Of a stretch of DNA of 64,000 nt, positions 31,650-35,831 are shown piece after piece; position 1 is the first letter of the stretch; the number at the start of each line of letters is the position of its first letter. The notes beneath the pieces are model-generated. The model was not told where the DNA came from. It made no database searches and was given only the letters and a program-made list of their open reading frames with translations. The stretch covers positions 2,852,001 through 2,916,000 of the forward strand of contig BJKQ01000001.1 of assembly GCA_006538405.1 (NCBI GenBank). Reading direction: 5' to 3'. Position numbers and translations under genes: made by a program. This stretch comes from Hansfordia pulvinata. Lineage: Eukaryota > Ascomycota > Sordariomycetes > Xylariales.

Positions 31650-32297
31650 CTACTGAGCCTGGGCGGCGGGCTCGTCGCGAGCCTCGTTCTGCTGGCCCGA
31701 CGCCGCGTCGCGCTTCTTCTCGTACGTGCCGTACTTTGCGTAGGTGGTCGGGTAGTCGGTGTACTTTCCGTAGTTTCCGTAGTCACCGTAGTCGCCGTAG
31801 TCGTCGCGCTTCTTGGGCTCTTCGGCGGGAGCAGCAGCAGCGGCGGCGTCGCGCTTCTTCTCGTAGGTGCCGTACTTGGCGTAGGTCGTGGGGTAGTCGG
31901 TGTATTTGCCGTAGTTTCCGTAGTCTCCGTAGTCTCCGTAGTCATCACGCTTCTTGGGCTCTTCGGCGGGGGCGTCGCGCTTCTTGTACGTGCCGTATTT
32001 TGCGTAGGTCGTGGGGTAGTCGGTGTATTTGCCGTAGTTGCCGTAGTCGCCATAGTCGCCGTAGTCGTCGCGCTTCTTGGGCTCCTCGGCGGGAGCGTCA
32101 CGCTTCTTGTAGGTGCCGTACTTTGCGTATGTCGTGGGGTAGTCGATGTACTTTCCGTAGTTGCCGTAGTCACCGTAGTCGCCGTAGTCGTCGCGCTGCT
32201 TGACGGCGGCGGCGGCGGCGGGGGTGTTGGGGTCGGCAACGGGGGCGGCCAGGACGGCGGCGGCCGAGGTGAGGGCCAGGAAGGCGGTGGCTCTCAT
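31650..32297 (-). CDS. Secreted Kex2-type repeat precursor, candidate RiPP (dikaritin-like) precursor
   Basis: A single exon of 215 residues. The start at 32297 gives a clear signal peptide (MRATAFLALTSAAAVLAAPV). Four nearly identical 28-residue cores follow at residues 36-63, 77-104, 118-145 and 165-192. Each starts DDYGDYGDYG, has a central NYGKYTDYPT (I for T in copy 1) and ends TYAKYGTY, with nine tyrosines. Each core is followed by KKR (EKKR in copies 3 and 4) and separated by an acidic spacer DAPAEEPKKR (DAAAAAAPAEEPKKR before copy 4). Copy 1 follows KQR. The KKR sites fit Kex2-type cleavage followed by Kex1 trimming, so this is a Kex2-processed repeat protein. That architecture is shared by fungal pheromone precursors and by RiPP precursors such as UstA. 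The tyrosine-rich cores and the UstYa-family neighbour at 34522 favour a RiPP. The product is not predicted. A structural, adhesive or signalling peptide is the alternative. Confidence 0.88.
   Translation of the reverse strand: MRATAFLALTSAAAVLAAPVADPNTPAAAAAVKQRDDYGDYGDYGNYGKYIDYPTTYAKYGTYKKRDAPAEEPKKRDDYGDYGDYGNYGKYTDYPTTYAKYGTYKKRDAPAEEPKKRDDYGDYGDYGNYGKYTDYPTTYAKYGTYEKKRDAAAAAAPAEEPKKRDDYGDYGDYGNYGKYTDYPTTYAKYGTYEKKRDAASGQQNEARDEPAAQAQ
31722..32192 (-). repeat. Four-copy coding tandem repeat in the precursor gene
   Basis: Core-coding units are at 32109-32192, 31986-32069, 31863-31946 and 31722-31805, spaced by 39 to 57 bp of spacer codons. The peptide sequence is nearly invariant, while third-codon positions differ between units (for example synonymous changes in the Gly, Asn and Asp codons). 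The copies are therefore not recent exact duplications and appear to be held by selection or by imperfect gene conversion. Confidence 0.88.
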
Positions 32298-32480
32298 GGT
32301 GACGTTGTGTGTGTGGAGGGGTTTGAGGGGTTGAAAGGAAGGAAGGAGTTGCTTCCTCAATGGTTGTGAGAGAGAGAGGGGATGGAAAGGAGGAAGAAGA
32401 AGAAGAAGAAGAAGAAGAGACAAAGAGTCTTGGGGTTGGTTGTGCTGGTTGTGAGAGGGAAATCAAATGTGAATGACGGG

Positions 32481-32488
32481 TTCTTATA
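32481..32488 (-). promoter_or_regulatory. TATA-like box of the repeat-precursor gene
   Basis: Read on the minus strand, the sequence is TATAAGAA, about 190 bp upstream of the start at 32297. A long TTC/CT-rich tract (about 32395-32420 in plus coordinates, as GAA) lies between it and the ATG. That arrangement is common for strongly expressed fungal genes. Role inferred. Confidence 0.45.
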
Positions 32489-33111
32489 CACGGCTCAAGC
32501 TGTATATGCTGCTGATACTACTGATACTACTACTACTGCTGCTTTTCTTGCTCCGATAGTCCCTCGAGTCGAACTCGTGAGAATCCCCACCAGGGCCGGG
32601 TCCATGCTAGAGAGGGTGAGGATGTCCGCCAGTCGTCAGCCCGACCAACAGCACACACACACATACGAGAAAGAGAGGAGAGAGGGTGGGGGGGGGGGGT
32701 GGACGAGGCGAAGTCGAACGCCAGTCGGACGCCTCCTCTTCGTCGCCGTCGTCGTCGTATCCCATTGCGGCCTCTCAAACCCACAACACTGCCCCGGGGA
32801 ACAGCTATACCAAGATTGGGACTCGGCTTCCGGCGTCCCCGACTCCGACTCGATCCCATGTGACCCGGCCGCCCGCCCGCGTGCTTCGGCCTGGTACGAG
32901 TGCGTGCAGGTAGGTACAGCCTGGTCTTACACGCAGATCTGCTCAAGGCGGGGTGCGGGGTGGATGTTTGCGTGATGGCGACGGGCCGGATAAGGCCCAG
33001 ATCGCGGGTCACGTCAGATCAGATCAGCGCAGGCAGTCATCAGGCAGTCAGGCAGCCAGGCGACCAGGCGACCAGTGCGATGAAGCTTCGTGTTGTGTGT
33101 GGATGTGCAAG

Positions 33112-33226
33112 CAGTCAGTCAGTCAGTCAGTCAGTTGGTGCTGGCTGGTACTGGCTGGTACTGGCTGGCTGGATGGATGGATGGATTCATGGATGCGTAC
33201 ACACACGAGCTTACGTGCTCCAGTAT

Positions 33227-33257
<31 letters not shown>
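33112..33257. repeat. Cluster of (CAGT)n, GATG and (AC)n microsatellites
   Basis: (CAGT)6 runs from 33112, short TGGATGGATGGATGG iterations lie near 33170-33185, and (AC)15 lies at 33228-33257. All are non-coding and seen directly. Confidence 0.85.
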
Positions 33258-33258
<1 letters not shown>

Positions 33259-34114
33259 TCCCTGTGTCTATGTCTTTAACTTTGGCTGTCTTTCATTCCG
33301 CTTGTACATACGAGGGACGGACTTGGAGAAGAGGAAGCCATGCTATATGGAGACAAATATAGGCCAGAATAGGACAGAATAAGACAGGGCGGGGGACCCA
33401 AGACACGCTCGCTCAGCCTCATTCATTCATTCCCCGGAGAATGCATGACTCGGGCGAATCACGAGGGGGGCTCTGTCGCCAGCCACCGGGTCAGAAACGC
33501 CATCGGCCGCCTCGGGAAAGCATACTGTAAAGTAGGCACTGTATATAGGCACTGATTACATACCTCTCGTATCTGACATAAGTAGGTATGTACTTAAGGT
33601 AGGTTGGGTTGCTCATACGAGTGCTTATTTCTGACGCTGCTGCTGCTGCTGCTGCTCCACCCCCGCACACACAACGTAACGTCCGAATCGTGTAACACGA
33701 GCGACACCTTTTCAGCCGTCGGCCCGATGAGGCGAGGCGGGGCGAGGCGAGGCGTCAGAGGCGTCAGACCCTAAAATCTGAGCAGAATAAAAGAAGCTGG
33801 CTAACTAACTGACTGGCTGGCTGGCTGGTCCAATGAGAAGAGAGAGAGATAGACAGAGAGAGAGAGCCTCAGCCCCCGCCCGCTCGCCCGCCCGCTTCGG
33901 ATGCGGCCGTCCGTCGCTGCTGTCAGCTCAGCCAGCGCATGATTATGTGTGCATGAATACGAGCATGGGGAAAAAAAGACAGGGCTACAGAGTTCAACCA
34001 TATTAGTTCTCACTCATCGGATGGGGCCTAAAAATAGAGAGCTCTAAATTATACGTGAATGGTGAAGAAAAGGGACCGTCTGTGGCTTGCCCAATAGAAT
34101 AGCTTCCTCTGTTA

Positions 34115-34180
34115 TACACACACACACACACACACACACGCAGAAGCCGGGCTGTGCTGTGCTGTGCTGTGCTGTGCTGT
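34115..34180. repeat. (CA)n and (GCTGT)6 repeats
   Basis: A CA run at 34115-34139 is followed by six perfect copies of GCTGT at 34151-34180, about 340 bp upstream of the oxidase start. Seen directly. Confidence 0.85.
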
Positions 34181-34268
34181 GCCAGACCACGTAATCGCAC
34201 CGACCAACGCAGCAGAGCAGAAACGTTCGATGGTGCCGGTGGCGCTGCTGGGAGAAGGAGGGGATGAT

Positions 34269-34337
34269 CTCTCAAGCCCGACAAGTCGGAATACACACGA
34301 TGAGGGCATATTCTCAAGCCGACAAGTCGGAATACAC
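34269..34337. promoter_or_regulatory. Duplicated upstream element with CCG-N6-CGG everted repeats
   Basis: A 27-28 bp phrase occurs twice (from 34269 and 34311) with one base indel. Each copy contains the perfect palindrome CCGACAAGTCGG, at 34278-34289 and 34319-34330, 41 bp apart and 192-244 bp upstream of the ATG at 34522. Paired CCG/CGG half-sites are the typical targets of dimeric Zn2Cys6 regulators, for example the everted CCG-N4-CGG site of Leu3. A role in pathway-specific control of the oxidase is inference. Confidence 0.5.
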
Positions 34338-34521
34338 CACCCCCTCCCTTCCCCTTTGCCCCCGTCTTCTTTCTTTCTTCTCGTCTTCCCTCTTTCTCTT
34401 CTTCTTGTCGTGGGTTTTTCCTTTTCCTTCTTCCTCTTCGTCGAGTTGATACTACAACTCCTTCCTCTTCTTCTCTGTCGCTGCAAAGCAAAACAAGTCA
34501 TCCTCTCTCCCTCCCGACAAT

Positions 34522-35831
34522 ATGGACCGGCTCCTGGGCAAAAGCGAAGAGGAGCAGCCCCTGGCGCGCCAGCTCGACGAACTCTCGACGACCGACGACG
34601 GCGACGACTCGCTGCTTGACGACGGCTTAGTCGGCCACCACCGCCTCCTCCGCCGGCAGCAGCATCATCGCCAGTCGCGCTGGCGCTCCTCCGGCTGCTG
34701 CTTCCTGTCGGCCGCCGCCGTCCTCATCACCACCGCCGTCCTCTCCTCCGCCGCCGGCGCCGCCCTGGCCTACTCCACCCTCAACCTCGACAGGGAGTGC
34801 GCCAAGCACACCTCCAAGTATTGTGAGTTGACTCCTCCTCCACCCTTCTTCTTCTTCTTCTTCTTCTCATTCATTCTTTCCTCTCTCCTTCCTATCTACC
34901 ACTCAAAAACAGAGATAAAGACAGAGACGGAGACGGAGACTGACACCCCCTCGAAAACAATAGCCCCCGTACTCAAGGACGTCGACGTCCAGTGGGGGGA
35001 GACGCAGTTCAACGGCAGCTTCATGGCCGAGTCCATCTACAGGCAGCCCGCGTCTCCAGAGGTGGACGCGGCGTGGGAGGCTCTGGGCATAGATTGTGAG
35101 TGGCGGCGTGAGAGATAGATGGAGAGAGAGAGAGAGAGAGACGACGATGATGCAACAACATTTGAACCCCCTTTTCTCCCTCGACACTCAACTCCCAATA
35201 GTTACTAACCAGCACAAAACCCCCCCAAACCAGCCCTGCCCGGCGTCATATCAGAGGAGGAGGGCTTCAAGTCGGGCCTGACCGAGCACCACGTCCGCGT
35301 GTCGGACAAGTACGGGGGCGGCTTTCTCGTCAACGTCGAAGGTATGCAATTACCCCTCTCCCTATCATTCTCCTGCCAGCCAAAAAGACAAACCGCGTAT
35401 TTTTTTTTTTATAAAGTCATCCTGACCCTCCCACCCCCCCCTGAAATTAAATAGGAATGCACCACCTCCACTGCCTAAACCTCCTCCGCAAGTCCATCTG
35501 GTACAACGAGCCCTACTACCGCGCCCAGGGCCGCCACGCCTTCGCCAACCCGGACCCGGTCCTGCGCCGCCACGTCTCCCACTGCCTCGACACCGTCCGC
35601 CAGGTCCTCGCCTGCTCCGTCGACACGGGCGTCCTGGGCCAGGTCTGGTACGACCCGGCCAAGCCCCGGGCCTTCCCCGACTTCCGCACCGCCCACACCT
35701 GCAAGACCCCGCCCACCTTCGACGCCGTCCGCCGCTGGGCCGTCGACGCCCAGAGCCCCGCCGAGGAACTCTTGCCCCGGGACTTCCTGAGGCGACCCAG
35801 GGACGAGGACGTGCTTCCTGCTGAGATTTGA
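34522..35831 (+). CDS. UstYa-family (DUF3328) membrane-anchored oxidase
   Basis: UstYa-family proteins carry out oxidative cyclisation and related steps on fungal RiPPs (ustiloxin, phomopsin, asperipin-2a) and some non-ribosomal peptides. Four exons: 34522-34822, 34964-35095, 35234-35341 and 35455-35831. Donors are GTGAGT, GTGAGT and GTATGC; acceptors ATAG, CCAG and ATAG; the second intron has an ACTAAC branch site. The phases join to 305 residues. A cytosolic N-terminus (1-55) precedes one hydrophobic span (about 58-84, CCFLSAAAVLITTAVLSS...). The lumenal domain has the family's conserved segments: TSKYSPVL, FNGSF, SPEVDAAWEALGID, and the two HxxHC motifs HHLHC (183-187) and HVSHC (220-224). 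The first intron is left unspliced in the plain open frame, but removal at 34963 gives the family-like KYSPVLKDV junction. Divergent to the tyrosine-rich repeat precursor, its likely substrate source (inference). Confidence 0.92.

What the first reader, a model, noticed from the sequence alone, without database searches (positions are those of the whole stretch)
31650..35831. Divergent pair: tyrosine-rich Kex2-type repeat precursor and UstYa-family oxidase, a minimal dikaritin-like RiPP locus
Seen: a secreted 215-residue protein with four 28-residue cores, each with nine tyrosines and bounded by KKR, and 2.2 kb away, in divergent orientation, a single-span protein with both HxxHC motifs. Known: ustiloxin, phomopsin and asperipin pathways pair Kex2-cleaved repeat precursors with UstYa-family oxidases that cross-link tyrosine side chains. 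Inference: the oxidase modifies the released cores. The core is much longer and more tyrosine-rich than the characterised dikaritin cores I know, and no tyrosinase, methyltransferase, peptidase or transporter is visible nearby, so this may be a distinct, minimal peptide system.
Basis: partly seen in the sequence, partly recalled or inferred. Interest (0 to 1): 0.9.

Follow-up and report, generated by a model that had tools for sequence, protein, structure and literature searches.

The report
Tyrosine-periodic peptide precursor beside oxidase
A filamentous fungus carries, side by side, a gene for a secreted-looking precursor built to be cut into four near-identical tyrosine-rich peptides and a gene for an oxidase of a family known to cross-link tyrosines, and relatives of both lie on one contig in two other fungi, so they probably make a modified peptide together.

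Summary
At 31650-32297(-) lies a 215-aa Kex2-type repeat protein (KEP) with four 28-residue cores, nine Tyr each, a Tyr at nearly every third position. At 34522-35831(+) lies a four-exon gene for a 305-aa UstYa/DUF3328 protein with both HxxHC motifs. The 84-nt cores differ at 14 columns, 13 of them silent. The KEP has Tyr-Gly-rich relatives in several ascomycete groups; the oxidase has close relatives in many Sordariomycetes. Of three species found in both listings, two (Truncatella angustata, Colletotrichum sojae) have the partners on one contig and one (Coniochaeta) does not. Named neighbours look like housekeeping genes; no tyrosinase, S41 peptidase or P450 match fell in the window. KEP plus UstYa is a known arrangement (22% of KEPs in a published survey), so the principle is not new. 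The long periodic Tyr core turned up in none of my literature searches, which were limited. Tyr cross-linking is inferred; no product, expression or activity was tested.

The parts
31650..32297 (-). Kex2-type repeat precursor (KEP), 215 aa, four tyrosine-rich cores, no intron
   Evidence: ORF, analysis, relatives
32244..32297 (-). N-terminal hydrophobic stretch, probable signal peptide (residues 1-18)
   Evidence: read by eye from the sequence; no signal-peptide predictor was available
32109..32192 (-). core 1 (Ile variant), preceded by VKQR, followed by KKR
   Evidence: offsets, window coordinates by arithmetic
31986..32069 (-). core 2, preceded by KKR, followed by KKR
31863..31946 (-). core 3, preceded by KKR, followed by EKKR
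31722..31805 (-). core 4, preceded by KKR, followed by EKKR
32298..34521 (.). shared divergent intergenic region, 2224 bp, rich in simple repeats
34278..34296 (.). first copy of a 19-nt direct repeat holding the palindrome CCGAC-AA-GTCGG, on the oxidase side only
   Evidence: its first 17 nt occur exactly only here in the genome, twice
34319..34337 (.). second copy of that 19-nt repeat
34522..34822 (+). UstYa-family oxidase, exon 1 (N-terminal tail and membrane span)
   Evidence: splice enumeration; Pfam; hydropathy
34964..35095 (+). UstYa-family oxidase, exon 2
35234..35341 (+). UstYa-family oxidase, exon 3
35455..35831 (+). UstYa-family oxidase, exon 4, with both HxxHC motifs
35460..35474 (+). 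first HxxHC motif (HHLHC, residues 183-187)
   Evidence: window coordinates by arithmetic
35571..35585 (+). second HxxHC motif (HVSHC, residues 220-224)
   Evidence: window coordinates by arithmetic

Best explanation
A two-gene peptide system. The precursor enters the secretory pathway; Kex2 cuts after the dibasic sites, and trimming releases up to four near-identical 28-29-residue peptides with a Tyr at nearly every third residue. The neighbouring UstYa-family protein, a single-span membrane enzyme whose HxxHC...HxxHC site should face the lumen, oxidises Tyr residues of the precursor or of the released cores, most likely forming side-chain links, less likely another C-H oxidation. The modified peptide is secreted. 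The spread of the oxidase over many orders and the housekeeping surroundings suggest a basic biological role more than an accessory metabolite. Shown here: the genes, the constraint on the core, the family memberships, same-contig linkage in two other species. Inferred: processing, topology, enzyme-substrate relation, chemistry, role.
For: Core repeats constrained: 13 of 14 variable nt columns silent. YG-rich relatives: in 73 rows kept after dropping 8 of 81, 753 of 1033 Tyr-Tyr intervals are exactly three residues against 12% in shuffles (partly circular, because rows were found through YG words). Linkage: Truncatella angustata precursor P0007 and oxidase P0030 both list a 3,258,494-bp contig, ids 350222 and 350226; Colletotrichum sojae precursor P0170 and oxidase P0035 both list a 97,083-bp contig. 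The window oxidase keeps 32 of the 33 residues invariant in 58 relatives, among them all His and Cys of both motifs. An AlphaFold model of the relative P0030 puts the motifs on two helices (163-188, 197-217) and has a helix at 43-68 where the membrane span lies, as described for the dicopper enzyme CctR (PMC12435403, part 1 of 3 read). A proprotein-convertase P-domain match is present in the genome. In print, 65.6% of repeats of KEPs near DUF3328 genes contain Tyr against 38.2% otherwise (PMC7329392).
Against: Coniochaeta sp. 2T2.1 lists the two partners on different contigs (4,453,468 and 4,640,340 bp). Linkage could be judged in only three species, from contig lengths, not DNA. Truncatella falls in the same 12-row tree clade as the window, so only C. 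sojae is a clearly distant case. The precursor family reaches classes where I could not look for a linked oxidase. The C. sojae relative has no KR-separated repeats. The palindromic repeat near the oxidase is absent near the precursor start, so no shared control element was found. No expression or product data. UstYa proteins are also implicated in desaturation, hydroxylation and halogenation, so the reaction type is open.
Confidence: 0.66

Rival explanations
1. The tyrosine-rich peptides are secreted unmodified (a linear signal or pheromone-like peptide), and the oxidase serves another substrate; the neighbourhood is coincidence or shared chromatin.
For: 6120 of 7878 KEPs in the published survey have no DUF3328 gene nearby (PMC7329392); Coniochaeta has the partners on different contigs; no shared promoter element found.
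Against: Same contig in two other species; with three UstYa loci in 46.8 Mb (a lower bound) a 2.2-kb spacing is unlikely by chance, about 3 in 10,000 for one randomly placed gene (my arithmetic: 3 x 2 x 2.3 kb / 46,805 kb); Tyr retained in all cores.
Confidence: 0.2
2. The YG-rich proteins are structural or adhesive wall or spore-coat material; tyrosines are cross-linked between chains into a polymer and not into discrete cyclic peptides; the oxidase primes or performs this.
For: Tyr-Gly periodicity over long stretches; several relatives lack regular Kex2 repeats; oxidase relatives in many orders and housekeeping-type neighbours.
Against: Regular Kex2-spaced repeats in the window precursor, and two or more Tyr-rich [KR]R fragments in 35 of 73 rows, point to discrete peptides; I recall no polymerising UstYa enzyme.
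Confidence: 0.1
3. Low-complexity sequence or pseudogene without function.
For: The region is rich in simple repeats.
Against: 13 of 14 variable columns silent, frame open over 215 codons, similar secreted-looking proteins elsewhere.
Confidence: 0.02

Closest known systems
Dikaritins, especially asperipin-2a (AprA/AprY)
   Same: Kex2-cut repeat precursor next to a UstYa-family oxidase; Tyr-containing core. AprY is essential for asperipin-2a and was proposed to make its rings in sequence; core FYYTGY, ether links between Tyr side chains and beta-carbons (PMC6514808, passages). Two Tyr of that core are three residues apart, as here.
   Different: Core of 28 aa with nine Tyr against six residues; no transporter or reductase gene detected beside it among the ORFs scanned; no product known.
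KEPs with DUF3328 neighbours, survey of 1461 strains (Umemura 2020)
   Same: Anatomy and neighbourhood; 1758 of 7878 KEPs had a DUF3328 gene within 15 genes (PMC7329392).
   Different: I could not match the YG family to one of its 838 types: the core profiles are in a figure and supplements that I could not see.
Tyrosine-rich KEPs of Rhizophagus irregularis
   Same: KEP-derived peptides 'intriguingly rich in Tyrosines', with the open question whether they are cyclised (PMC6339444, passage).
   Different: Another phylum; sequences not seen, no link to a UstYa gene stated in the passage.
Cyclochlorotine hydroxylase CctR (DUF3328)
   Same: Membrane helix and HxxHC(x)nHxxHC site on helices (PMC12435403, part 1 of 3; model of the relative P0030).
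   Different: Acts on a non-ribosomal cyclic peptide; copper and activity not tested here.
Neurospora POI2 (ustiloxin-type KEP needed for sexual development)
   Same: A KEP with a developmental role, as told in PMC7329392 (section 9).
   Different: Different core (YXIX type); known to me second-hand.

Membership tests
Kex2-processed repeat protein (KEP) | near-identical repeats separated by dibasic Kex2 sites | tested here: met
   seven [KR]R sites, four 28-aa cores; core 1 lacks a canonical site on its N side
Kex2-processed repeat protein (KEP) | N-terminal signal peptide | tested here: inconclusive
   hydrophobic N-terminus seen by eye; no predictor available
Kex2-processed repeat protein (KEP) | a Kex2-type protease in the organism | tested here: met
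   one P_proprotein match over the cut-off, 66.9 bits, positions 1-58 of 86, one stop inside the match, perhaps an intron; catalytic domain not searched
UstYa / DUF3328 oxidase | Pfam UstYa profile above cut-off | tested here: met
   167.8 bits against 25
UstYa / DUF3328 oxidase | two HxxHC motifs | tested here: met
   HHLHC and HVSHC; their His and Cys invariant in 58 relatives
UstYa / DUF3328 oxidase | single membrane span near the N-terminus | tested here: met
   one hydropathy peak; helix 43-68 in the model of the relative P0030
UstYa / DUF3328 oxidase | binuclear copper, O2-dependent activity | not testable with these tools
   reported for CctR
Dikaritin RiPP | KEP precursor with repeats of at least 10 aa close to a UstYa gene (working criterion of the Venturia survey, PMC9632046 passage) | tested here: met
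   2.2 kb apart, 28-aa cores; same contig in two of three species that could be judged
Dikaritin RiPP | short repeats as in the characterised members (typically 13, 14 and 8 aa) | tested here: not met
   28-aa cores; not a defining feature in every definition
Dikaritin RiPP | cluster tailoring genes (tyrosinase, S41 peptidase, P450 and the like) | tested here: not met
   none among 20 scanned window ORFs besides the pair; no tyrosinase match on contig C1; no S41 match in the genome; no scored P450 match in the window (92 of 173 candidates scored). Small or spliced genes could be missed. The asperipin-2a cluster as described has no tyrosinase either
Dikaritin RiPP | side-chain macrocycle in the product | not testable with these tools
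   no product data

The most novel reading that the evidence does not exclude
An old, class-wide two-gene system of filamentous ascomycetes: a dedicated, largely vertically inherited UstYa enzyme links tyrosines three residues apart along a long Tyr-periodic peptide, giving a ladder-like polycyclic ribosomal peptide with a developmental or cell-surface role, unlike the short characterised dikaritins.
Probability: 0.22. Interest if true: 0.82.

Novelty: new variant of a known kind. Interest (0 to 1): 0.52.

Why it matters
A 2022 review counts only five reported dikaritins (PMC10512285, passages), several of them mycotoxins, while the enzyme family is widespread; what most members do is open. 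A conserved precursor-oxidase pair, with oxidase relatives in genera that can be handled genetically such as Colletotrichum, Verticillium, Fusarium and Trichoderma, would let one test whether UstYa enzymes also serve ordinary fungal biology, and whether one such enzyme can modify many tyrosines along one peptide.

Tried and rejected
Shared promoter element: a 19-nt direct repeat with palindrome CCGAC-AA-GTCGG occurs twice near the oxidase start and not near the precursor start. In the window CCGACNNGTCGG has 2 matches, 0.16 expected, 1 of 100 shuffles with as many. Genome-wide the 12-nt palindrome has 9 copies against 11 for the reversed control, so it is not enriched; the 17-nt string has 2 exact copies, both here, and 8 with up to 2 mismatches against 4 for the control.

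Second YG precursor in the own genome: beyond the window gene only a weak match (E 0.047) in a stretch that I read by eye as a metacaspase-like gene; rejected.

Solved-structure relatives: no credible match by sequence (3 hits, best E 0.042, TetR regulators) or by fold (6 hits, best E 4.3). Related loci: none confirmed among 63 pattern matches in bacterial and archaeal genomes and 102 in viral contigs.

In print: five YG core strings searched in full text, no paper; a word search gave two papers, neither with the term 'tyrosine-rich'. Supplements, figures and most subscription papers were out of reach.

Linkage elsewhere could only be read from contig lengths and names in two protein listings (the best 120 of 517 oxidase hits shown; 80 precursor hits at E <= 0.01, with only the 7993 candidates sharing most words scored). 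I compared the two lists by eye. Fusarium keratoplasticum, Thyridium, Purpureocillium lavendulum, Colletotrichum cuscutae and the other named precursor species are not in the oxidase rows shown, so they could not be judged.
Full report
What is there. The window lies in a 46.8-Mb genome of 63 contigs, a filamentous ascomycete judging by its genes. At 31650-32297 on the minus strand is an uninterrupted 215-codon frame. Its product has a hydrophobic N-terminus and four cores DDYGDYGDYGNYGKY[T/I]DYPTTYAKYGTY of 28 residues with nine Tyr, separated by spacers such as DAPAEEPKKR. At 34522-35831 on the plus strand a four-exon gene gives a 305-aa UstYa-family protein. Of the ten combinations of the splice sites I tried that stay open, I chose the one with donors GTGAGT, GTGAGT and GTATGC that keeps the family motifs. 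The intergenic sequence is 2224 bp.

Is it more than chance? The four 84-nt cores differ at 14 columns; 13 are third positions and silent, one changes Thr to Ile. A random single change in the core is silent about 20% of the time. So the peptide sequence is held by selection, although gene conversion between copies may also play a part.

The precursor family. A first search gave 11 hits, a profile search 80 at E <= 0.01. Most are short secreted-looking proteins rich in Y-G-x-Y, many with blocks ending Y-x-x-Y-K-R, from several ascomycete groups by their names (sequences of some). I left P0011 out of the profile by eye as unlike the others. For spacing counts I dropped 8 of 81 rows: seven with precomputed ParA-type or kinase-type Pfam domains and P0199, which has another Pfam domain; I did not otherwise curate the weak rows. 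In the remaining 73 rows, window protein included, 753 of 1033 Tyr-Tyr intervals are exactly three residues, against 12% in shuffles. Before dropping, 79 of the 81 rows gave 825 of 1205. This is partly circular, since hits were collected through YG words. In 35 of 73 rows two or more Tyr-rich fragments are delimited by [KR]R.

The oxidase family. The window oxidase had 517 hits, the best 120 listed; the named ones are mostly Sordariomycetes, with a few such as Cadophora, Xylogone and Monascus from other classes (class and order of genera recalled except where looked up). In a tree of 123 rows the rows group roughly by order: the Colletotrichum and Verticillium rows form one supported 16-row clade, and the window sits in a supported 12-row clade with Apiospora, Pseudomassariella, a Xylariaceae species, Truncatella and others. 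The picture is not clean: five Xylariales-like rows and four Microdochium-like rows stand apart, the Hypocreales rows are joined only by an open fork, the window branch is long (0.72) and its exact place unsure, and the two paralogue fragments used as outgroup are very long branches. The two linked rows P0030 and P0035 lie in different clades. Some species have more than one row (Pseudomassariella vexata, Thozetella sp., Xylariales sp. PMI_506, Verticillium dahliae), so single-copy status is not shown. In 58 aligned relatives 33 columns are invariant, among them all His and Cys of both motifs; the window protein keeps 32.

Linkage elsewhere. Truncatella angustata: precursor P0007 (BKA67DRAFT_350222) and oxidase P0030 (BKA67DRAFT_350226), both with longest contig 3,258,494 bp; the near-consecutive ids suggest close neighbours (inference). 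Colletotrichum sojae: precursor P0170 (CSOJ01_08250) and oxidase P0035, both 97,083 bp. Coniochaeta sp. 2T2.1: precursor P0160 on 4,453,468 bp, oxidase P0017 on 4,640,340 bp, so not linked. That is two of three. The three species belong to three subclasses. The window's own order is not known; Truncatella is in its tree clade, C. sojae is not. P0170 has a long N-terminal extension, probably a wrong gene model, and within its YG part only one KR site, near the end, so the repeat architecture is not a fixed part of the pair.

Surroundings. Of ten window frames scanned, Pfam named KAR9, an aminotransferase-V/MOSC protein (molybdenum-cofactor-sulfurase type), a CDC6-type ATPase, two halves of an arrestin-like protein, SUN, a C2H2 zinc finger and SIL1 (the last below its cut-off); two had no family. 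Ten further ORFs of 180 aa or more gave none. Smaller or spliced genes were not scanned, so a small tailoring gene could be missed. Tyrosinase matches lie on seven other contigs, none on C1. No S41 peptidase was found in the genome. No scored P450 match falls in the window (92 of 173 candidates scored).

Other UstYa loci of the genome. I scanned about 50 kb around each of the two others (loci, script). Near the one on C2 (about 3,057,000) lies a different repeat frame with 39-residue His-rich units AIVHGTEHTHDG... ending in KR, at C2:3037086-3037820, about 19 kb away; its signal-peptide-like start is in another frame. Near the one on C13 the script found none. The detector is crude.

Mechanism. 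In print, DUF3328 proteins are held to cyclise ustiloxin-type peptides through Tyr (PMC7329392; PMC9233826 passages). AprY is essential for asperipin-2a and proposed to act in sequence (PMC6514808 passages). CctR is a membrane-bound dicopper homodimer; its modelled HxxHC motifs sit on helices (PMC12435403, part 1 of 3). My AlphaFold model of the Truncatella relative (58 rows, pLDDT 74.9, pTM 0.65) has both motifs on long helices and an N-terminal helix where the membrane span lies; it is a monomer and says nothing on copper. I therefore infer that the oxidase acts in the same compartments as Kex2, on Tyr of this precursor. That links form between residues three apart is only a suggestion from the periodicity and from the YTGY end of the asperipin core.

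Novelty. The arrangement is known: 1758 of 7878 KEPs have a DUF3328 gene within 15 genes (PMC7329392), and tyrosine-rich KEP peptides were remarked on in Rhizophagus (PMC6339444 passage). I found no paper naming this Tyr-periodic family: five core strings gave no paper, and word searches led to surveys and reviews of which I read passages, single sections or outlines without finding it. Supplements, figures and most subscription papers were out of reach. So: a new variant of a known kind, with a linkage result that favours, but does not prove, a functional pair.

Noticed in passing
L019:4387-5121 (own genome C2:3037086-3037820, minus strand): A second Kex2-type repeat frame with 39-residue His-rich units (AIVHGTEHTHDGLGEGPQGDGIVQSTSHTGGGITG.. 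then KR), about 19 kb from another UstYa gene of the same genome; its signal-peptide-like start is in a different frame, so an intron or model problem is likely.
   Followed up: partly
window 34278-34337: Two copies of a 19-nt direct repeat with the palindrome CCGAC-AA-GTCGG, 41 bp apart, within 250 bp of the oxidase start codon; looks like a pair of regulator sites; its first 17 nt occur exactly only here in the genome.
   Followed up: partly
precursor relatives, for example P0133, P0160, P0170, P0151: A number of YG-rich relatives end in a short amphipathic-looking tail after a KR (such as ALDFIKSLWA or AIDFVKRLWS), absent from the window protein; possibly a second peptide.
   Followed up: no
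own genome, whole: No S41-family peptidase match in the 46.8-Mb genome in a six-frame family search.
   Followed up: no
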